Shown here: positions 252 to 8,663 of the stretch, piece by piece
Layout of the letters: each line of letters opens with the position of its first letter
Position numbering within the stretch: position 1 is the first letter of the stretch
Source of the DNA: Bacteroidia bacterium
Lineage (GTDB): Bacteria > Bacteroidota > Bacteroidia > NS11-12g > UBA955
DNA length: 11,807 nt
Assembly (NCBI GenBank): GCA_023254645.1
Contig: JALRLA010000106.1
Span: 1 to 11,807, forward strand
Reading direction: 5' to 3'
The notes under the pieces: model-generated
Database searches by the model: none
Seen by the model: the letters and a program-made list of their open reading frames with translations, nothing else
What the model was told of the DNA's origin: nothing
Made by a program: the position numbers and the translations under genes

Positions 252-284
252 CAAAGTTCCGCATTCTGCGCGGCTCTACCGCAA
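252..284 (-). promoter_or_regulatory. Possible promoter for the dehydrogenase gene
   Basis: On the minus strand GAACTTTG (259-252) resembles the Bacteroidota -7 box TAnnTTTG (5 of 6 informative bases), with a TTG (284-282) 22 bases upstream. It overlaps the end of anmK and would give a leader of roughly 16 bases. Visual match only. Confidence 0.25.
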
Positions 285-1374: not shown

Positions 1375-1405
1375 CAAAAATGCCCATTCCCTGACAAACT
1401 TGCAA
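1375..1405 (-). promoter_or_regulatory. Predicted anmK promoter, leaderless-type
   Basis: On the minus strand TTG (1405-1403), 20 bases, then CATTTTTG (1382-1375; 5 of 6 informative bases of TAnnTTTG), then GAGC and the ATG at 1370. Transcription starting a few bases after the box would begin at or next to the start codon. A second TTG-N20-CAAGTTTG match lies upstream (1425-1395) and would give a leader of about 20 bases; the sequence alone does not decide. Confidence 0.45.
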
Positions 1406-1466
1406 AAGTGAAGTGCCATAAACAAAAAATAGTTGCCCCTCACTAAGCCCATTTCCTCTTTTTTAT

Positions 1467-1474
1467 CTAGTTTG
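1467..1474 (+). promoter_or_regulatory. Weak -7-like box before the Tat aminotransferase
   Basis: CTAGTTTG ends four bases before the ATG at 1479. It keeps the TTTG half of the Bacteroidota -7 box but lacks the TA, and no -33 TTG is visible at the usual distance. It is listed because the box-to-ATG spacing equals that of better matches elsewhere in the window. Confidence 0.2.
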
Positions 1475-1478
1475 GAAC

Positions 1479-2750
1479 ATGCTCAATCGCAGACGATTCT
1501 TAGCTTGGACGGCCACAGCTGCTCCCCTTGCTCTTCAGGGCAATTCACTGTTATCCAACAACAAACCCAGCTTGCTAGAGGCCAAATTGGCGGCCGATTC
1601 TGACGATTGGGACCGCATTCGCAGCCTCTTTCCCTTGGACCGAAAGACGGTGTTTTTGAACAACGGCACCATGGGGGTCAGCCCTTATCCCGTCTTGCAA
1701 GCCAGCATAGATTCTCTGCAAGATTCGGCCACCCATGCCCGTTATCCCGGACACAACGACAAGTTGGAAAAACTACTGGCTGAGACCATTGGCTCCGATC
1801 ACGATGAGGTGGCCATCACCAAAAACGTCAGCGAGGGCATCAACCATATTTGCTGGGGCATTCCCTTGAAGAAAGGAGACGAAATCATTCTGACCAGCCA
1901 CGAGCATGTCGGCGGATGCGCCGCCTGGTTGCACCGAGCACGATTGGAAGGTTTGAGCATCAAAGTCGTGGATTTGAAACCCACGGCCGACCAAACCATG
2001 GAGGCCATCGAATCGGCCATCGGCCCACGCACCCGTGTGATTGCCGTACCTCACGTGCCTTGCACCATTGGCCAGGTTTTGCCTGTCCAAGACATATGCC
2101 GACTGGCCAAAATGAAAGGCATCATTTCGGTATTGGATGGCGCGCATCCGCTGGGAATGTTGCAATTCAACTTGCACGAAATAGGCTGCGATTACTATGC
2201 TGGCTGCCTGCACAAATGGGCCCTAGGCCCCTTAGGAACGGGGTATTTGTACATCAAAAAGGAGCGATTGGCCGAGACCCGCTGCACCCATGTGGCCGCT
2301 TATTCGCTGGATACTTTTAACATGAACGCCCAACCCCCTGCCCTCGGGGAATTGGTTGATTCTGCTTCGCGATTCAGTTACGGAAGCTTTTCTGGGGCGC
2401 TGATTGAAGGAGCTACGGCTGCCTTGGAATTTTACCATACCATGGGTCCTGCCCGTATCGAGCAGCGCAGCTTGGGCTTGGCCAGAATCTTGCAAGAAAA
2501 ATTGTTGGCCCTCCCGGTTGAACTCGAAATGCTCACACCGCTGGAGGCGCGCTCTAGAGGCGCTCAAATCTCCTTTAGGCTCAAAGACAAATCAAACGTC
2601 GAATTCGTTCAAGAAGCCCGCAAACAGCACATCATATTGAGGCATGTTGGCGAAAATGACATCGATTGTGTGCGCGTTTCCACGCACTACTACAACAACG
2701 AATCAGACCTCGAGGCCTTGCTCGAATGTTTGGTGGCTTATGCCGGTTAA
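1479..2750 (+). CDS. Tat-exported class V aminotransferase-fold PLP enzyme (isopenicillin N epimerase-like)
   Basis: A 423-residue fold-type I PLP enzyme of the class V/cysteine desulfurase-like group. Evidence: LNNGTMGVSP near residue 60 (substrate/cofactor entrance of isopenicillin N epimerase-like proteins), TSHEHVGG, the pyridine-nitrogen aspartate D220 in VLDGAHPLGM, and the Schiff-base lysine K246 in GCLHKWALGPLGTGYLY. The N-terminus MLNRRRFLAWTATAAPLAL is a twin-arginine signal (R4-R5 before F7-L8, then a moderately hydrophobic alanine-rich stretch), so the enzyme is probably folded with PLP in the cytoplasm and exported. Reaction and substrate cannot be inferred; epimerase, desulfurase-like or lyase activities are all possible. 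It stands alone in its orientation, starts 108 bases from the divergent anmK, and its TAA overlaps the TAA of the convergent downstream gene by four bases. Family is firm, function unknown. Confidence 0.9.
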   Translation: MLNRRRFLAWTATAAPLALQGNSLLSNNKPSLLEAKLAADSDDWDRIRSLFPLDRKTVFLNNGTMGVSPYPVLQASIDSLQDSATHARYPGHNDKLEKLLAETIGSDHDEVAITKNVSEGINHICWGIPLKKGDEIILTSHEHVGGCAAWLHRARLEGLSIKVVDLKPTADQTMEAIESAIGPRTRVIAVPHVPCTIGQVLPVQDICRLAKMKGIISVLDGAHPLGMLQFNLHEIGCDYYAGCLHKWALGPLGTGYLYIKKERLAETRCTHVAAYSLDTFNMNAQPPALGELVDSASRFSYGSFSGALIEGATAALEFYHTMGPARIEQRSLGLARILQEKLLALPVELEMLTPLEARSRGAQISFRLKDKSNVEFVQEARKQHIILRHVGENDIDCVRVSTHYYNNESDLEALLECLVAYAG

Positions 2751-4126
2751 GGGGCCTGGCGAATCAGGGTTTGGCTGATGGAGCGACCCTCTTTGGTCAA
2801 TACCAAGTGGTAGATTCCATTGCCCGCAGTTATAGGCCACTGCAACTCGGAACGAGATTGAACAGATCCTGAACCTGCAGCAACGACCTGGCCCAATGAA
2901 TTGATCAGCGCATAGGAATCAAAACCACCGTACATGAATATTCCAATGGTCTCAGAGCTGCTCGGATTGGGATAGATTCTTACCTGAATGTCTTCCAATT
3001 TCAATGCCAGTTGAGCAGTGTGATCGCCACAATCATCGATCAAAGAGGCGACAGGGCTATCGGCGTGGGCCTTGGCCCAAACCATGATATCATCGCTGTA
3101 ATCGTGAATCCAATCGGCAATTTGCTGGGTATCGAGACTGGTCCAATAATTATTCGAAAAATCAAAGTCCCAACCGGCTGCTGGGTTTTTATTGGTTCCC
3201 GTAAACTTGATTTTTTGACCAGTACCGGGATAGCGCAAAAAGTTGTTGCGATTCAAATGGGCGATGATGGGTTTGCTGCTGTCAGGCGTTGATCCGCTGA
3301 TGCTCATCATGGGGTAAAAACTACCCCCACAGCTGTCAAACGTATTACCGGTCGCTTGAACTCTCAAGGTATCGTAGTATCCCCAGCAATTCAATTGGAA
3401 ACCCGAAGCCATGTTTTCAAAACGATTGCACTCCATTTCCAAGGAGCCGTAAACGGAGACGGTAACACTGCCCGTACCCTTCACCCAGTTGCGATTGAAT
3501 TGAATATCGGTACCGTATCCGTAGACCGAATATTGGTTCTCGAAGGTGTCGTATTCCACGTTCAGCGTTCCTTGACCCGAGGTATAGATGGGATAGCCAT
3601 ACTTGGAACTCGATGGGAAACGGGAATGCAACACTTGCACGATGCCTTTATTGCTGCTGAATCGGTTGTATACGCCATAATAGGCATCTTCCATGCGGCA
3701 ATGCTCGACATCGACCCCCGCGCACTCGTTGTAGATGCTATAGGTACCCGAATTCGCTTGCCCATGGAAATGACAAAATTTGAACTGGGCACCCGTGTCT
3801 GAGGCCAAATTATATCCAGCGGCCTTGGCTTGCAAACGAACTTGGAACCCTTCCATGTGAATCATGGAATCAGGTTTTCCTACCGCTTCAATTCGGCCAT
3901 CGATGATGAATTGCAAAGCCTTGCTCGCGACTACGGTAACACCGGGTTCAATGCGAATGAAGGCTCCATCAGCCAAATAGGTATTGGCTGACAGGGTGTA
4001 TGGACTACCAGAAGCGGTCCAAGTTTGGTCAGTATCAATGTAGTTGGGTACGCTAGTCTGGGCTTGAAGGGAGGAAAAACCCATCGCGCCTATCAATCCG
4101 AATAACAGGGATTTGGTCTTAATCAC
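2747..4126 (-). CDS. Secreted right-handed beta-helix protein with T9SS type A sorting domain
   Basis: A 459-residue exported protein. It begins with a lipid-free signal peptide (K3, K5, hydrophobic core LLFGLIGAMGF, cleavage near LQAQ, residue 23). Residues about 30-350 show the short repeating beta-strand/turn pattern of parallel beta-helix proteins (for example VDVEHCRMEDAYYGVYN, LNVEYDTFENQYSVYGYG, LEMECNRFENMASGFQLN, VQATGNTFDSCGG), ending in FSNNYWTSLDTQQIADWIHD, a segment typical of Bacteroidota beta-helix proteins. Residues about 377-459 are a T9SS C-terminal domain (VRIYPNPSS at about 383, then NSLGQVV and NGIYHLVL), which directs outer-membrane transport and surface attachment or release. 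No catalytic residues of polysaccharide lyases are recognisable; an adhesin or glycan-binding role is possible but unproven. The start is GTG (4124-4126): an in-frame TAA lies four codons upstream. It converges on the PLP enzyme gene with overlapping stop codons. Confidence 0.9.
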   Translation of the reverse strand: MIKTKSLLFGLIGAMGFSSLQAQTSVPNYIDTDQTWTASGSPYTLSANTYLADGAFIRIEPGVTVVASKALQFIIDGRIEAVGKPDSMIHMEGFQVRLQAKAAGYNLASDTGAQFKFCHFHGQANSGTYSIYNECAGVDVEHCRMEDAYYGVYNRFSSNKGIVQVLHSRFPSSSKYGYPIYTSGQGTLNVEYDTFENQYSVYGYGTDIQFNRNWVKGTGSVTVSVYGSLEMECNRFENMASGFQLNCWGYYDTLRVQATGNTFDSCGGSFYPMMSISGSTPDSSKPIIAHLNRNNFLRYPGTGQKIKFTGTNKNPAAGWDFDFSNNYWTSLDTQQIADWIHDYSDDIMVWAKAHADSPVASLIDDCGDHTAQLALKLEDIQVRIYPNPSSSETIGIFMYGGFDSYALINSLGQVVAAGSGSVQSRSELQWPITAGNGIYHLVLTKEGRSISQTLIRQAP

Positions 4127-4130
4127 TTTG

Positions 4131-4138
4131 TAAAGTTA
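4131..4138 (-). promoter_or_regulatory. -7-like box of the T9SS beta-helix gene
   Basis: TAACTTTA on the minus strand (4138-4131) matches 5 of 6 informative bases of TAnnTTTG and ends four bases before the GTG start. It predicts a leaderless mRNA. No good -33 TTG at about 20 bases; CTG is present there (4161-4159). Confidence 0.35.
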
Positions 4139-4185
4139 CCCATTGCTAATTTAATAAGCAGATTCTCAAGGCAAATGACACTGCG

Positions 4186-4193
4186 TACATTTG
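4186..4193 (+). promoter_or_regulatory. -7 box of the menE-like gene, leaderless-type
   Basis: TACATTTG is a perfect Bacteroidota -7 box and is followed by CAGT and the ATG at 4198. No alternative start codon exists upstream in frame before a TAA at 4147-4149, so if this box is used the transcript begins at about the ATG. The -33 position holds TTC (4163-4165), not TTG. Confidence 0.5.
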
Positions 4194-4197
4194 CAGT

Positions 4198-5187
4198 ATG
4201 GCTTCCAACCGAACCTTGCATGCTGAATTTCTCGACGCCTGGCGATCAGGTGAAGAATCCTTCATCATGCACACTTCTGGTTCAACGGGCACTCCTAGCC
4301 AAATGATTTGGAAGAGAGAATTCATGATTTGGAGTGCCGAGCAAACCCTTTCTGCTTTTTTCAACTGCTGCCAAGACCTTAGCCAACTCTGCGTCTTGCC
4401 TTTAGACAAAGCAGGTGGCCTGATGCAGGCTGTTCGAGCGGAGGTATGGAAAACACCGATTGAGGTACGCGAAGCCACTTCTTTGCCCCAATTAGAGGGT
4501 CAGTTTTCGATCGTCTCTTTAACACCCATGCAACTTCACCATGTGGTACAGAGCAACCGCGGCATCGAACAATTGAAAGGGTTTCATACGGTTGTGCTGG
4601 GTGGAGGCCCCCTCGACCCTGACCTAGAGGCTCGTTTGACAGAGCCTGACTTGCTGCCTGTGCGCTTCATTCACACCTTCGGTATGAGCGAAACCTATAG
4701 CCACTTTGCCGGTCGAATCATCGGCGACACTCATGGCAATTACCGCGTTTTCAAGGGCTACGAATGGAAAGTGGAAGAAGAACTACTGTTTGTAAAAAGC
4801 CCTGCCACGGGCCATCAATGGCTAGAGACAAGGGATCGCGTGCGGGCCGAAGCCGGCAGATTCACCTGGCTGGGCCGGGCCGATTTTGTGGTCAATTCTG
4901 GGGGTATCAAACTCTCCATAGAGTCTATTGAAGAGGCAGTGTCTGCTCAATTGGGTTGGCCATTGACCGATTTCTTTGTTTGGAAAACACCTGACACCGT
5001 TCTCGGCGAGGCTCTGGTCTTGGTTCACACCCAGTTAACAACCATTGCGAGGACCTTGGATTGGTCTTTTTTACCCCCCTACCACAAACCCAAATTCCTT
5101 TACCATTGCCCTCATCCCATCATGGCCAACGGAAAGTGGCAACGGGCTACGAGCTTTGCTCAGTCGAGGGTGATCGACCTCAAATAA
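4198..5187 (+). CDS. menE: o-Succinylbenzoate-CoA ligase-like AMP-binding protein (MenE)
   Basis: MenE activates o-succinylbenzoate to its CoA thioester through an acyl-adenylate in cytoplasmic menaquinone synthesis. Visible adenylation-domain motifs: A3 phosphate loop HTSGSTGTP (residues 25-33), A5 FGMSETYSHFAG (about 161-172), A7 aspartate D213 in TRDRV, A8 hinge GRADFVVNSGGIKLS, and the A10 lysine K313 in NGKWQR near the C-terminus. At 329 residues it is much shorter than Escherichia coli MenE (about 450): the region before the A3 loop is reduced to about 22 residues, as is usual for Bacteroidota MenE homologues. The lysine that commonly follows TSGSTGxP is serine (S34) here. The gene stands alone, without menC or menD next to it, so the assignment rests on family resemblance. 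It overlaps the convergent small membrane-protein gene by eight bases. Confidence 0.8.
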   Translation: MASNRTLHAEFLDAWRSGEESFIMHTSGSTGTPSQMIWKREFMIWSAEQTLSAFFNCCQDLSQLCVLPLDKAGGLMQAVRAEVWKTPIEVREATSLPQLEGQFSIVSLTPMQLHHVVQSNRGIEQLKGFHTVVLGGGPLDPDLEARLTEPDLLPVRFIHTFGMSETYSHFAGRIIGDTHGNYRVFKGYEWKVEEELLFVKSPATGHQWLETRDRVRAEAGRFTWLGRADFVVNSGGIKLSIESIEEAVSAQLGWPLTDFFVWKTPDTVLGEALVLVHTQLTTIARTLDWSFLPPYHKPKFLYHCPHPIMANGKWQRATSFAQSRVIDLK

Positions 5188-5614
5188 TGCCAAAATTCAA
5201 GGCATTGAGCGTCAGGGCCAAACCCATGATACCAATGGCCAACAAGCGCATCCAAACCAACTCACCTGTCAGTTGAACGTATCGCTCGTCGTAGCCTTTT
5301 TCGGCCAGAAGCTTTTTCTGATAGAAGCCCATGGGCACCTGAATGCCTAGTATCAAGAGCAAATACAGAATCGAGTAAAAGTGGGAATATCCATTGTCCA
5401 TCATGGATGCTACGAGCACAAAAATCACGACTATGCCCAACAACAAATAGGTGGACAGGTTGCGAATGGGCTTCAAATCGGTGATCAAACGACCCCGAAC
5501 CTCATCGCTCAGCCTAAGCAAGCCCTTTTCGTGTTTGTTGCGTATGCGAATCACGATGGTGAAGTAGACGATGGCACCAATCAACATGGGCCAAATGGAT
5601 AACAACAATTCCAT
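5180..5614 (-). CDS. Uncharacterised four-helix membrane protein
   Basis: I do not recognise a family. The 144-residue protein has four clear hydrophobic segments at about residues 4-22, 54-72, 79-97 and 120-140, joined by charged loops: RIRNKHEKGLLRLSDEVRGR after helix 1 and QKKLLAEKGYDERYVQ after helix 3. No signal peptide cleavage site and no known catalytic motif are visible, so it is probably an integral inner-membrane protein. It follows the aldose-epimerase-like gene on the same strand after only 15 bases and is probably in its operon, but a -7-like box before its own ATG leaves separate transcription possible. Its TGA overlaps the end of the convergent menE-like gene, which constrains both C-termini (NFGII here). 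It could be an unannotated DUF family; function unknown. Confidence 0.7.
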   Translation of the reverse strand: MELLLSIWPMLIGAIVYFTIVIRIRNKHEKGLLRLSDEVRGRLITDLKPIRNLSTYLLLGIVVIFVLVASMMDNGYSHFYSILYLLLILGIQVPMGFYQKKLLAEKGYDERYVQLTGELVWMRLLAIGIMGLALTLNALNFGII

Positions 5615-5619
5615 GGCTG

Positions 5620-5627
5620 TAAAAATA
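5620..5627 (-). promoter_or_regulatory. -7-like box before the small membrane-protein gene
   Basis: TATTTTTA (5627-5620, minus strand) matches 5 of 6 informative bases of TAnnTTTG and ends five bases before the ATG at 5614. There is no -33 TTG at the usual distance (nearest gap 14). It may be an internal promoter or chance in an AT-rich gap. Confidence 0.25.
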
Positions 5628-5629
5628 GA

Positions 5630-6484
5630 TCAAAAGGGCTTCAAAGAGTAACTGAACGATTGACGTTCATTGGGCTTTAATACCCGAATGCCCTCTTTTT
5701 CAAAGAAACTCCCAGAGCTGCCAACCGAATCGGCCAATCCAGCCCAAGGTTCCAAGCAAAAGAAGGGCGCGCCTGGCTTGGTCCAAAAACCCCAGTAGGG
5801 AAAGTCATCAGCCGATGGCAATTGCATTTCAACCAAGGGACCACTGTTGTGTTCGAGACGTACGGAACTAATTCCACTGTTCTTGAACACGATGGCATCC
5901 TGCTGAAAATCTCCTGTTTTCAACGACAGTTCCTTCTGCTGGTTTAAACACGGACTTGAGTCGCCGGTATACAAGCCGTTTTCAATCAAATAACGCTCGG
6001 CAGTTAGGGGCTCTCCAAAAACCAATTGGTGTTCTTCCAATGGGCCCTCGAGGGCAAAACCGGGATGAGCACCAATCGAAAACGGCAGGTGACCATTTCC
6101 TGTATTGATGACCCTGTACTGAACCATCAATCGATCGAACTGAAGCTTGTATTCCACTTCCAGTTCAAATGAAAAAGGAAACCCCTGACGGGTTTGAACA
6201 TTATCTACCAATGTCAGTATCACCTGGTCTGCACTTTGATACCGAATGTTAAAATCACAATCGCGGGCGAAACCGTGTTGACGCAATTGGATGGTTCCTT
6301 CTGATACCTGAGAGCAATCGTTTTTAAGCTTACCTACAATGGGAAACAACAGGGGAGCCACTCGGTTCCAATAATGCTCGTCCACTTGCCACAGGCGATT
6401 CGGTCCACCCTGTTTGCTTAAAACCTGCAGTTCCGCCCCACGCTTGGATACTTCCACTTGAATCTGCCCATTTTCCAGTCTCAT
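5630..6484 (-). CDS. Aldose 1-epimerase family protein (LacX-like)
   Basis: A 284-residue galactose-mutarotase-like beta-sandwich protein of the LacX/YeaD type, which interconverts anomers of sugars or sugar phosphates in the cytoplasm. Supporting blocks: RLWQVDEHYWNRVAPLLFPI (about 30-49), RQHGFARDCDF with H70, SIGAHPGF with H140, and PYWGFWTKPGAPFFCLEPWA with E245. The two histidines and the glutamate correspond to the family's sugar-binding and acid/base catalytic residues, so the active site looks intact. No signal peptide is present. It is divergent from the DMT transporter gene (start codons 38 bases apart) and upstream of a small membrane-protein gene by 15 bases. No sugar operon is nearby, so its substrate cannot be named. 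Confidence 0.9.
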   Translation of the reverse strand: MRLENGQIQVEVSKRGAELQVLSKQGGPNRLWQVDEHYWNRVAPLLFPIVGKLKNDCSQVSEGTIQLRQHGFARDCDFNIRYQSADQVILTLVDNVQTRQGFPFSFELEVEYKLQFDRLMVQYRVINTGNGHLPFSIGAHPGFALEGPLEEHQLVFGEPLTAERYLIENGLYTGDSSPCLNQQKELSLKTGDFQQDAIVFKNSGISSVRLEHNSGPLVEMQLPSADDFPYWGFWTKPGAPFFCLEPWAGLADSVGSSGSFFEKEGIRVLKPNERQSFSYSLKPF

Positions 6485-6490
6485 GTGCAG

Positions 6491-6498
6491 CGAAGTTA
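6491..6498 (-). promoter_or_regulatory. -7-like box of the aldose-epimerase gene
   Basis: TAACTTCG (6498-6491, minus strand) matches 5 of 6 informative bases of the -7 box and ends six bases before the ATG at 6484. It lies back to back with the -7 box of the divergent transporter gene, only 11 bases apart. No -33 TTG at the usual distance. Confidence 0.3.
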
Positions 6499-6509
6499 AG
6501 GCTTGACTC

Positions 6510-6517
6510 TACCTTTG
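6510..6517 (+). promoter_or_regulatory. -7 box of the DMT transporter gene, leaderless-type
   Basis: TACCTTTG is a perfect -7 box and is followed by TGACC and ATG at 6523. It overlaps the alternative GTG at 6517-6519, which argues for the ATG as the true start. No clear -33 TTG is seen. Confidence 0.45.
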
Positions 6518-6522
6518 TGACC

Positions 6523-7380
6523 ATGAAGTGGGCCTTGTTGGCGAACCTACTGTTTGCACTCGTCGATTTAGCGTGGAAGCAAGCCCAGCAGTACAATTCT
6601 GTATCTGTCAATACGGCCATTCGATCCTGGACCTCCACCCTACTGTTAGGATGCGTGGTGTTGGTTGTAACTCCTAATTTAAATGAATGGAGCCAATCGT
6701 TTACGTATGCCATCCAACACGATTTTCGAATCATTGGAGTTGGACTTCTAGGTTGGCTCGGGTTGTGGGCCTTTGGAAAGTCCTTAAAAGACGGAGCCCT
6801 TCATATCATCATCCCTGTAGTAGCATTGACACCCGTTGTCACCTATGTCTTCTGGTTTTTCCAACATAACAGCCGATGGATGCCGCTTGAAAATTTGGCC
6901 ATTCTCTCGCTGATGATTGCAGGAATTTTACTCTCGTTCCAATTCCAAAGAAGTCAAGATCCTAAAGCCCCTACGCTTCCCATTATTTGGGCCTGTTTGG
7001 CTTCATGCAGCTGGGGCTTGTCCTATTCGTGGTACGAATCGGTCACTTCTCAAATAGGAGCCATCCCTACTGCAGCCTGGGTAGAAGCCTGCATAGCCAT
7101 TGGTTCAGCCTCCCTTTTGCTTTGGAAAAAATCAATTGCCTTCAGGGAAGTAAAATGGCCATTGCTCACCGGCATAATTACCGCATTAGCCGTATTAACG
7201 ACTGTACAATCGTATGCCGAACACGGCACTGAATCTACTGCTGTAGCCGGTGTAGTCACACCTGTGCTCTCGATATTTGGAGCTTGGATCATCAATAAAG
7301 AAAGGCCCATTGGTTTGCAGTGGGTCAGTCTATCCATATTGATAGTGACCTTGATTTGGCAAGCTTTGCGATTGGCTTAG
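6523..7380 (+). CDS. EamA/DMT-family membrane transporter
   Basis: A 285-residue, highly hydrophobic protein with about ten membrane segments in two EamA-like halves. The first half runs from MKWALLANLLFALVDLAWKQ to ILSLMIAGILLSFQF, and the second from LPIIWACLASCSWGLSYSWY to the C-terminus. Typical drug/metabolite-transporter features are the small-residue-rich helix start VVALTPVVTYVF and its counterpart GVVTPVLSIFGAWIINKERP, the second being the conserved end of the repeat where a P-x-x-x-x-x-G/A-x-x-x-x-x-E-R/K-P pattern is expected. It sits in the inner membrane; substrates of this family (amino acids, nucleosides, metabolites) cannot be read from sequence. The frame opens with GTG at 6517, but ATG at 6523 fits the promoter. 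Its TAG overlaps the TAA of the convergent HTH-like gene. Confidence 0.85.
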   Translation: MKWALLANLLFALVDLAWKQAQQYNSVSVNTAIRSWTSTLLLGCVVLVVTPNLNEWSQSFTYAIQHDFRIIGVGLLGWLGLWAFGKSLKDGALHIIIPVVALTPVVTYVFWFFQHNSRWMPLENLAILSLMIAGILLSFQFQRSQDPKAPTLPIIWACLASCSWGLSYSWYESVTSQIGAIPTAAWVEACIAIGSASLLLWKKSIAFREVKWPLLTGIITALAVLTTVQSYAEHGTESTAVAGVVTPVLSIFGAWIINKERPIGLQWVSLSILIVTLIWQALRLA

Positions 7381-8516
7381 AGATTATTTTTGATTCGATT
7401 CCAGTGAAACCGATTCATTTCAGCATTGTGCAGATGGTAAAAAACTGCCGGTTCCATAACCCGATTCTCTAAGGCACTGACTAGACTGTTGAAATGCTTC
7501 CATTCAATCGTTTGTTGTGAATTTCGCGGCTTGAATTGTTGGGTATAGGGTTCTATAATTTCTTTGATTAATGGCCAATCTGCGCGCTGCAGCTGGCGAA
7601 CCAAAAATTGAGACGTTCTCAACTGGTCATCATGAGGAATGGAACTATACCAAGATTCAATTAAATCCAACACTATGGACTTTCTATCGGCATCAATTTG
7701 AGAAAAACAGCCTGCCAACCGCGCAATAGGAACATTGGACATTTTATCAGTCAATTGCATGAGTCGATCCCATTCCCGAATTGAAGGAGGCATTAACTGC
7801 GTTTCTCGAAGATGGTTCAGCGAAAAATCAATCGCTTTTTTGTCTGAGGTCAGCCAAAATTTCTCTGGGCATTCTTCGGCACGGGGCATCAGAGCCAAAT
7901 ACCAATTGGGTCTTTCCTCATCTATAAAGTAAGTCGTAATTCGCTCCATGAAAAAGGGATGATTGATGACTTTCTCGGGCAAAGAAGTCACATCTATTTG
8001 TCCTTTTCTCATGCTCAGAGCCAATACCAGACCTGAGAGATACAAATCTTCCCAAGTCTTCATCCTGGATTGAGCCTCCGAGAACAATTCATCCCAATGA
8101 GTCACAGGTGAAACGAGCAATCCCGTTTGAAACCAAGCTTGATTTTCAGAGACCCAAACCTCTGAATTCGAAATGGCATTCATCGACTTTGCTCCTTCTC
8201 CTTGCGACAATTTGGCCAGATATGCCAGAAATCTCTGACCAAATTGTTGACCCCTTACCCAATCAGCGTAATCGACAAAACCTAAATAGCGAGTCAACGT
8301 ATCTAAGGTACTGCTGCTCGGCAATACTTTTACTTGCTCACTAAAGAAACGCTGCAAAGTGGAAACACTAATAAGAATTCCCGTTTTCAAGAAAATTTGG
8401 CAAGACAAAGATTCGTATTGCTTGGTAGATTGGGGCGAATATCCTTCTTTGGAGATTAGATCTCCCCTCAACTTTACCAAATCTTCAACGACTAATTTTT
8501 TTAGTGGGCGTGCCAT
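7377..8516 (-). CDS. Uncharacterised protein with HTH-like N-terminal module
   Basis: A 379-residue soluble protein without signal peptide or membrane segment. Residues about 38-87 (SCQIFLKTGILISVSTLQRF, then SSSTLDTLTRYLGFVDYADW) carry the pattern 'S-x-x-T-L-x-R-F-F ... S-x-x-T-L-D-x-L-x-x-Y-L-G-x-x-x-x-x-x-W', which I recall from N-termini of many Bacteroidota hypothetical proteins and which resembles a cro/xre-like helix-turn-helix. The remaining 290 residues look all-helical with no motif I recognise; a TPR-like helical repeat is possible. The N-terminus MARPLKK is basic. The gene is divergent from the LytTR regulator across 147 bases, so a regulatory or partner role is plausible but is inference. 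The ATG at 8514-8516 is preceded by AGGA, the only reasonable Shine-Dalgarno-like sequence at an ATG here. Confidence 0.75.
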   Translation of the reverse strand: MARPLKKLVVEDLVKLRGDLISKEGYSPQSTKQYESLSCQIFLKTGILISVSTLQRFFSEQVKVLPSSSTLDTLTRYLGFVDYADWVRGQQFGQRFLAYLAKLSQGEGAKSMNAISNSEVWVSENQAWFQTGLLVSPVTHWDELFSEAQSRMKTWEDLYLSGLVLALSMRKGQIDVTSLPEKVINHPFFMERITTYFIDEERPNWYLALMPRAEECPEKFWLTSDKKAIDFSLNHLRETQLMPPSIREWDRLMQLTDKMSNVPIARLAGCFSQIDADRKSIVLDLIESWYSSIPHDDQLRTSQFLVRQLQRADWPLIKEIIEPYTQQFKPRNSQQTIEWKHFNSLVSALENRVMEPAVFYHLHNAEMNRFHWNRIKNNL

Positions 8517-8521
8517 TTTCC

Positions 8522-8550
8522 TAAATGAACTTATTTGATAAGAAATCCAA
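8522..8550 (-). promoter_or_regulatory. Possible promoter of the HTH-like gene
   Basis: On the minus strand TTG (8550-8548), 18 bases, TTCATTTA (8529-8522; 4 of 6 informative bases of TAnnTTTG), then GGAAA and the ATG at 8516. The -7 box is weak and the AGGA could instead serve as a ribosome-binding site on a longer leader. Confidence 0.25.
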
Positions 8551-8583
8551 AAGGTTGATAATCAAGTTTATAAATTTCAAATA

Positions 8584-8621
8584 TTTTGGTTCAATGCAAG
8601 ATACCAACTCGCTAACCAAAA
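8584..8621. repeat. Inverted repeat TTTTGGTT / AACCAAAA in the divergent intergenic region
   Basis: A perfect 8-base inverted repeat (arms 8584-8591 and 8614-8621, 22-base spacer, about three helical turns centre to centre). A further AACCAA follows at 8621-8626 and an ACCAA lies at 8603-8607. It sits between the divergent HTH-like and LytTR genes and could be an operator. Eight bases in AT-rich DNA can occur by chance. Confidence 0.25.
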
Positions 8622-8626
8622 ACCAA

Positions 8627-8657
8627 TTGTTTGATTAAACGAAAAAGGTTCAATTTG
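8627..8657 (+). promoter_or_regulatory. Predicted promoter of the LytTR/sensor-kinase operon
   Basis: TTG (8627-8629), 20 bases, TCAATTTG (8650-8657; 5 of 6 informative bases of TAnnTTTG), then AATAAA and the ATG at 8664. This is one of the two promoter matches in the window with both elements at standard spacing. The short distance to the ATG predicts a nearly leaderless transcript. Confidence 0.5.
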
Positions 8658-8663
8658 AATAAA

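What the first reader, a model, noticed from the sequence alone, without database searches (positions are those of the whole stretch)
1375..8663. Window-wide pattern: -7 boxes end 4-6 bases before the start codon, predicting leaderless mRNAs
Seven genes have a match of at least 5 of 6 informative bases to TAnnTTTG immediately before the start: menE TACATTTG-N4-ATG, DMT TACCTTTG-N5-ATG, LytTR TCAATTTG-N6-ATG, T9SS protein TAACTTTA-N4-GTG, aldose epimerase TAACTTCG-N6-ATG, anmK CATTTTTG-N4-ATG, small membrane protein TATTTTTA-N5-ATG. Two more (PLP enzyme, HTH-like gene) show weaker versions at N4 and N5. The fixed spacing to the start codon is hard to explain by AT-richness alone. Established: Bacteroidota sigma factor recognises TTG/TAnnTTTG and ribosomes there depend little on Shine-Dalgarno pairing. 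Inference: transcription begins within a few bases of the start codon, so leaderless initiation may be the default in this organism.
Basis: partly seen in the sequence, partly recalled or inferred. Interest (0 to 1): 0.7.

Follow-up and report, generated by a model that had tools for sequence, protein, structure and literature searches.

The report
Promoters sitting against gene start codons
In an uncultured Bacteroidota genus, about a third of the genes that head a transcription unit appear to have their promoter placed so that the messenger RNA begins at, or within a few bases of, the start codon; this would make leaderless messages common in a phylum where measurements in model species found them rare.

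Summary
In detail: 7 of 9 window genes have a TAnnTTTG box of at least 5/6, ending 4-6 bases before the start (shuffles: mean 0.26, maximum 3). It holds genome-wide. Exact TAnnTTTG-N4-ATG occurs 105 times here, against 17 for N3 and 10 for N12; two congeners give 119/16/10 and 138/22/19. Unseeded motif discovery on 618 first genes finds TAnnTTTG, 33% of genes having it at gap 3-8. The boxes behave as sigma-A -7 elements: G is avoided at the free positions, and operon-internal genes mostly lack them (7 of 274, against 51 of 296 divergent genes). By the F. johnsoniae geometry, gap 4 puts +1 on the A of ATG. Within the genus orthologs keep the gap; outside, leadered promoters are usual in the few orthologs seen. 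"Default" is too strong: about half of recognised promoters are leadered. Among 88 genomes of the order and 97 others of the class, this genus's three genomes have the largest excess, atop a gradient. No transcript 5' ends were available.

The parts
4186..4193 (+). -7 box TACATTTG, 4 nt before menE ATG (4198)
   Evidence: 6/6; posterior 1.00; same box and gap in the close relative L063
6510..6517 (+). -7 box TACCTTTG, 5 nt before DMT (EamA-type) ATG (6523)
   Evidence: 6/6; posterior 1.00
6491..6498 (-). -7 box TAACTTCG, 6 nt before aldose-epimerase ATG (6484)
   Evidence: 5/6; posterior 0.99
1375..1382 (-). -7 box CATTTTTG, 4 nt before anmK ATG (1370)
   Evidence: 5/6; posterior 0.96; a 5/6 box at the same gap in L063 and L064
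1403..1410 (-). older, degenerate anmK box CACTTTTG, 32 nt before the ATG, a few bases farther up than the TATTTTTG boxes (18-26 nt) of outside orthologs; possible second, leadered promoter
4131..4138 (-). -7 box TAACTTTA, 4 nt before the GTG start (4126) of the T9SS-type gene
   Evidence: 5/6; posterior 0.88; TATTTTTG at the same gap before GTG in L063
5620..5627 (-). -7 box TATTTTTA, 5 nt before the small membrane protein ATG (5614)
   Evidence: 5/6; posterior 0.77; 5/6 at the same gap in L063
8650..8657 (+). probable -7 box TCAATTTG, 6 nt before LytTR response regulator ATG (8664)
   Evidence: 5/6; posterior 0.67
1467..1474 (+). weak box CTAGTTTG, 4 nt before PLP-enzyme ATG (1479)
   Evidence: 4/6 at gap 4, 5/6 at gap 3; posterior for gap 3-8 0.52
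8522..8529 (-). weak box TTCATTTA, 5 nt before the HTH-like gene ATG (8516)
   Evidence: 4/6; posterior for gap 3-8 0.28: not supported
252..259 (-). contrast: -7 box GAACTTTG of the leadered glutamate-dehydrogenase-like gene, 12 nt before TTG 239 and about 21 nt before the likelier GTG start

Best explanation
In this uncultured Bacteroidota genus (g1) the -7 element (TAHHTTTG) of the housekeeping sigma factor lies 3-8, most often exactly 4, bases before the start codon in about a third of the genes that head a transcription unit. RNA polymerase starts 4-5 bases after this element (measured in F. johnsoniae), so transcription begins on the A of ATG or G of GTG, or up to about 4 bases before it. 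The mRNA is then leaderless or nearly so, and the ribosome must start on a 5'-terminal AUG/GUG without upstream contacts. Shown here: the boxes, their fixed distance, their promoter-like features, their conservation in the genus, and their scarcity inside operons. Inferred: the start sites and the mode of translation. A second promoter class with ordinary leaders coexists.
For: Whole-genome exact counts for N3/N4/N12: G000 17/105/10, G001 16/119/10, G002 22/138/19, against flat counts in G011 84/87/101 and G025 97/99/102. 6/6 box at gap 4 in 59 of 926 genes, shuffled mean 0.30; 7,205 internal in-frame ATGs give 0-4 per gap. Unseeded motif discovery returns TAnnTTTG with 14% of first genes at gap 4 and 33% at gap 3-8 (bootstrap 29-36%). 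In 120 boxes chosen on six positions only, G at the two unchosen positions is 0.05 and 0.04, the TAHHTTTG rule of F. johnsoniae promoters (PMC6847099, section 14). Context: 6/6 box at gap 3-8 in 51 of 296 divergent genes, 28 of 90 same-strand genes 11-40 nt from their neighbour and 28 of 232 farther than 40 nt, but 7 of 274 within 10 nt. Same gap kept in 12 of 13 ortholog pairs within the genus. ATG 109 of 826, GTG 11 of 49, TTG 0 of 51 called starts carry a 6/6 box. The genome encodes a 287-aa primary-type sigma factor whose matches to solved SigA chains begin after their N-terminal part.
Against: No transcript 5' ends. No -33 TTG element stands out: 0-7 counts per spacer against 2.0 expected; it is also much less evident in F. 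johnsoniae. C at -1, expected at a start site, is also common in operon-internal genes (0.49 against 0.73 for box at gap 4). Gene starts come from a home-made caller, and the ortholog counts use only pairs whose starts agree. anmK keeps an older leadered-type box. For G006 (g5) the whole-genome excess (42/Mb) is not matched by its gene sample: 0 of 56 genes with a 6/6 box at gap 3-8; for G078 (26/Mb) it is 3 of 84.
Confidence: 0.86

Rival explanations
1. The pattern is the ordinary minority of leaderless genes seen across Bacteroidota, only easier to see here because the G+C content is higher and the background lower.
For: Other genera also show an N4 excess: g6 mean 25.9/Mb, g5 24.9/Mb, g2 22.7/Mb; G152 27.5/Mb and G078 26.4/Mb in the wider class. 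N4/N3 ratios tend to be high where the background is low (G016, G469, G447, G215).
Against: The excess is an absolute difference (N4 minus N3 per Mb), and the three g1 genomes (46, 54, 55/Mb) rank 1-3 of 88 in the order and lie above all 97 sampled class genomes (median -0.8/Mb, highest 27.5/Mb). The modelled gap 3-8 share of first genes is 0.33 in g1 against 0.06 in G011. Published fractions are about 3.7%, 5.5% and at most 13%.
Confidence: 0.12
2. The TTTG-containing box is a translation signal in the mRNA (a ribosome or S1 contact site), not a promoter.
For: It is anchored to the start codon; Bacteroidota use non-SD upstream features for initiation (PMC6847099, PMC10783764, passages).
Against: Operon-internal genes need translation as much but mostly lack it (7 of 274). 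The G-avoiding middle positions match the sigma-A element. Gap 3 is nearly empty (3 of 120 boxes; N3 counts near the reversed control) while gap 4 is full, as expected if transcription must not start inside the ORF.
Confidence: 0.04
3. The boxes are promoters, but the true start codons lie downstream, so the messages have leaders.
For: Starts were called from sequence, and errors are expected in any gene caller.
Against: The peak is locked to ATG/GTG and absent for TTG calls (0 of 51). The anmK start aligns from residue 1 and is ATG in 12 of 12 other loci with a match.
Confidence: 0.05
4. Chance or AT-rich upstream sequence.
For: Upstream regions tend to be rich in A+T.
Against: Shuffles, shifts of the spacing and the flat counts in an AT-richer relative (G025, 31.5% G+C) all speak against it.
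Confidence: 0.005

Closest known systems
Sigma-ABfr / sigma-A promoters of Bacteroidota (-7 element TAnnTTTG, TAHHTTTG)
   Same: Same six fixed bases, G avoided at the two middle positions, weak -33; 4-5 nt from element to start site assumed the same (PMC6847099, passages and section 14).
   Different: In F. johnsoniae 87% of predicted transcripts with a probable promoter have leaders over 10 nt; here about half of recognised promoters abut the start codon.
Leaderless genes of Actinobacteria and Deinococcus-Thermus (TA-like signal about 10-12 bp before the start; PMC3160421, passages)
   Same: [quoted passage not shown] use of both ATG and GTG in such genes is recalled for mycobacteria, not from a call.
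   Different: Different sigma factor and box; here in Bacteroidota, which that study named among clades with many 'atypical' genes.
Measured leaderless minority in Bacteroidota: B. thetaiotaomicron (about 3.7% of 5' UTRs under 10 nt, PMC7366714, passages), F. psychrophilum (5.5%, PMC9723704, passages)
   Same: Same phylum and -7 element; leaderless mRNAs exist.
   Different: The predicted share here is several times larger, and the geometry is conserved in the genus.

Membership tests
Bacteroidota sigma-A (-7) promoter | TAnnTTTG core | tested here: met
   Found by unseeded motif discovery
Bacteroidota sigma-A (-7) promoter | G nearly absent at the two middle positions (TAHHTTTG) | tested here: met
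   0.05 and 0.04 in 120 boxes
Bacteroidota sigma-A (-7) promoter | -33 TTTG/TTG element | tested here: not met
   No clear peak of TTG at spacers 10-29; I do not treat it as defining, since it is also much less evident in F. johnsoniae promoters
Bacteroidota sigma-A (-7) promoter | Short primary sigma factor lacking region 1.1 in the genome | tested here: met
   287-aa ORF in L003; best solved match aligns from its residue 97 on; judged by length and alignment only
Leaderless mRNA gene | Transcript 5' end at or within a few nt of the start codon | not testable with these tools
   No RNA data; inferred from 4-5 nt between -7 box and start site in F. johnsoniae
Leaderless mRNA gene | Promoter element at fixed distance from the start codon, above shuffled and shifted controls | tested here: met
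Leaderless mRNA gene | Signal scarce in genes inside operons | tested here: met
   7 of 274
SD-independent Bacteroidota translation (anti-SD sequestered by bS21/bS18/bS6) | bS21 present | tested here: met
   11 of 11 genomes searched
SD-independent Bacteroidota translation (anti-SD sequestered by bS21/bS18/bS6) | State of the 16S 3' end | tested here: inconclusive
   One exact pattern found no 16S 3' end in 11 genomes; its single hit lacks 16S context; an Rfam search did not complete

The most novel reading that the evidence does not exclude
A Bacteroidota lineage has shifted its promoters onto its start codons, making leaderless initiation one of two main expression modes, with the leadered mode kept mainly for strongly expressed genes. 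The shift is graded along the family, so intermediate stages can be read in living relatives, as at anmK, where ten outside loci have the box 18-26 nt upstream while the window and its two nearest relatives have a new box at 4 nt, and two of these three keep a relic of the old one.
Probability: 0.6. Interest if true: 0.75.

Novelty: new variant of a known kind. Interest (0 to 1): 0.62.

Why it matters
Ribosomes of Bacteroidota do not recognise Shine-Dalgarno sequences although the anti-SD is kept (PMC10783764, passages), and how they choose starts is not fully understood. For F. johnsoniae leaderless mRNA was considered and set aside because most transcripts are leadered (PMC6847099). A genus where start-abutting promoters are common offers a natural test: the same ribosome type, with and without leaders, in close relatives. 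It would also improve start and promoter annotation: in this genus a TAHHTTTG box at 4 nt marks the start codon.

Tried and rejected
Rejected: chance and AT-richness; a translational signal. A -33 element was looked for and not seen. Genome size alone does not explain the excess: Spearman -0.20, p 0.06, 88 genomes; 20 genus means p 0.55. The correlation with N3 density is circular and not used; that with the reversed-control density is -0.29 (p 0.005), but p 0.23 on genus means. The 16S 3' end could not be found by pattern, and an Rfam search for it did not complete. Codon adaptation rests on a reference of six genes picked by recalled protein motifs (one, 'L2', is probably misnamed), and of the five reference starts printed, two (AtpD-type) are leadered, two (DnaK and 'L2') have a near-start box and one lies 15 nt behind its neighbour; so it is only suggestive. 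Column conservation was hard to read because control pairs are largely coding upstream; mainly the gap comparison is used. The mixture model saturates (motif fraction 1.00) for the small samples (G003, G006, G025, G078, G191) and for the g1 operon-internal set, so those shares are rough. The GeneMarkS-2 paper is not held. The taxon name was not settled: relatives are MAGs, the nearest titled Bacteroidetes or Bacteroidota, others Flavobacteriales or Chitinophaga pinensis; my guess of an NS11-12-type order is recalled, not tested.
Full report
Observation. Every quoted box is present. Seven of nine genes have a TAnnTTTG-like box of at least 5/6 ending 4-6 bases before the start. Shuffling the upstream 40 bases 20,000 times gives a mean of 0.26 and a maximum of 3 such genes. 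PLP and the HTH-like gene are weak (posterior 0.52 and 0.28), and the glutamate-dehydrogenase-like gene looks leadered.

Genome-wide test. The window lies in G000, a draft of 1.92 Mb in 424 contigs. Exact TAnnTTTG-N4-ATG occurs 105 times (pattern read backwards: 20), against 17 for N3 and 10 for N12; the two congeners held give 119/16/10 and 138/22/19. One base of spacing removes the signal. In stretches of the three genomes (926 usable genes: called start, 90 bases upstream, at least 80 codons), a 6/6 box sits at gap 4 in 59 genes (shuffled mean 0.30, maximum 3 in 300), at gap 3-8 in 120, and a box of at least 5/6 at gap 3-8 in 231, against 80 at gap 9-14 and 39-62 in the further six-position windows. 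At 7,205 internal in-frame ATGs the counts are 0-4 per gap.

Unseeded discovery. A one-or-none motif search with free position, from 40 random starts, returned TAnnTTTG on 618 first-in-unit genes (divergent, or more than 10 nt behind a same-strand neighbour): 64% have it within 55 nt, 33% at gap 3-8 and 14% at exactly gap 4. The bootstrap gives 29-36% of first genes and 45-55% of recognised promoters (window left out). For G000 alone (111 genes) the gap 3-8 share is 0.33; for G011 (119 genes) 0.06. The smaller samples (G003 0.28, G006 0.09, G025 0.14, G078 0.12, G191 0.08) are rough because the model saturates there.

Why a promoter. (a) The 120 boxes were chosen on six positions; at the two free ones G is 0.05 and 0.04, the TAHHTTTG rule reported for F. 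johnsoniae promoters, where many have 4-5 nt between the element and the start site (PMC6847099; passages, section 14 read). (b) A 6/6 box at gap 3-8 is found in 51 of 296 divergent genes, 28 of 90 same-strand genes 11-40 nt from their neighbour, 28 of 232 farther than 40 nt and 6 of 38 without a called neighbour, but in 7 of 274 within 10 nt. (c) Gap 3 is nearly empty (3 of 120) and gap 4 full (59 of 120): any closer, and transcription would start inside the ORF. (d) ATG (109 of 826) and GTG (11 of 49) starts carry it, TTG calls do not (0 of 51), though TTG calls may often be wrong. (e) The genome has a 287-aa primary-type sigma factor without the long N-terminal part. A -33 element was not seen. 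C at -1 is enriched (0.73) but also common in operon-internal genes (0.49), so it is not used as proof.

Conservation. Among ortholog pairs within the genus whose starts agree (8 of 31, 25 of 38 and 48 of 98), genes with a 6/6 near box keep at least 5/6 at the same gap in 12 of 13 cases. G000 and G002 are close (median 96%), so the telling pairs are G001-G002 (7 of 7; median protein identity 78%) and G000-G001 (2 of 3). Counting 5/6 boxes in these two comparisons, 21 pairs have a near box in at least one member, 16 in both, 14 at the same gap; any g1 gene has at least 5/6 at gap 4 with frequency 0.10. In those 21 the six fixed box positions are identical in 0.71-0.86, the 16 columns upstream in 0.33-0.67 (pairs were chosen for having a box). 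Against genera outside (G003, G006, G011; 20 pairs with agreeing starts over five comparisons), 6 g1 genes had a 6/6 near box: the partner has a near box in 1, a 6/6 box only at 9-31 nt in 4, and none in 1. At anmK, 10 of 10 outside loci (L065-L074) have TATTTTTG 18-26 nt before the start and no near box, while the window, L063 and L064 have a 5/6 box at 4 nt; the window and L063 also keep CACTTTTG farther up. L063 and L064 are taken as same-genus relatives from identity only (96% and 78% for the PLP enzyme).

Distribution. By N4 minus N3 per Mb, the three genomes of the genus rank 1-3 of 88 in the order (55, 54, 46); next are G006 (42) and G469 (39). Genus g15 (15 genomes) averages 0.7. In 97 other class genomes the median is -0.8 and the highest 27.5. 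A second baseline, N12, taken for 14 genomes, gives much the same picture. A lineage whose preferred gap is not 4 would be missed. The genus is thus the extreme of a gradient, not an isolated case. Genome size does not explain it.

Two modes. rpsU of g1 has its box TATATTTG 23 nt upstream with an A-rich leader. Genes with a near-start box are rarer among the most codon-adapted genes: 6 of 120 in the top tenth, against 28 of 85 leadered ones (six-gene reference picked by recalled motifs). Against a simple split, dnaK has a near-start box. That leaders serve strong expression is therefore a suggestion. Divergent intergenic medians are shorter in the genus (88-129 nt) than in G003 (134), G006 (169), G011 (190) and G025 (198).

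Literature. Seen as passages: F. johnsoniae 87% of predicted transcripts with leaders over 10 nt (PMC6847099); F. psychrophilum 5.5% leaderless (PMC9723704); B. thetaiotaomicron about 3.7% of 5' UTRs under 10 nt (PMC7366714). Zheng 2011 names Bacteroidetes among clades with many atypical genes (PMC3160421). [quoted passage not shown] so the general idea is in print. StartLink describes the FCB group as using non-canonical AT-rich RBSs (PMC9581028). Among the titles and abstract starts listed (20 of 75, 20 of 60, 1, 4, 20 of 30, 8 and 6 papers) I saw no report of a Bacteroidota lineage with start-abutting promoters as a main class; the library holds open-licence papers only.

Limits. No RNA data; draft genomes; part of each genome sampled for gene-level counts (228 kb of G000); a home-made gene caller; ortholog tests restricted to agreeing starts; the whole-genome and gene-sample measures disagree for G006; the 16S 3' end was not found.

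Noticed in passing
window 6485-6522: The 38-bp space between the divergent epimerase and DMT genes holds two back-to-back -7 boxes (6491-6498 minus, 6510-6517 plus), a very compact bidirectional promoter.
   Followed up: partly
L158, L160, L164 (g1 genomes), rpsU: rpsU (bS21) is leadered: TATATTTG then 23 nt, A-rich, before ATG; by eye no extended Shine-Dalgarno sequence, unlike what an abstract (PMC9976891, search listing only) reports for many Flavobacteriales.
   Followed up: partly
G000-G002 samples: Genes with a near-start box are rarer among the most codon-adapted genes than leadered ones (6 of 120 against 28 of 85 in the top tenth), hinting at a division by expression level; dnaK is a counter-example.
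   Followed up: partly
window 2750-4200; L065-L074: In 8 of 9 outside loci with a menE match, menE lies directly behind the PLP-enzyme gene; in the window and L063 a T9SS-type gene lies between them and menE has its own start-abutting promoter.
   Followed up: partly
G152, G078, G469, G006 genomes: Other small genomes in and outside the family also show a start-locked N4 excess (26-42 per Mb), perhaps intermediate or parallel shifts.
   Followed up: no
G000-G002 samples: GTG starts carry a 6/6 near box at least as often as ATG starts (11 of 49 against 109 of 826), suggesting that 5'-terminal GUG is accepted.
   Followed up: no
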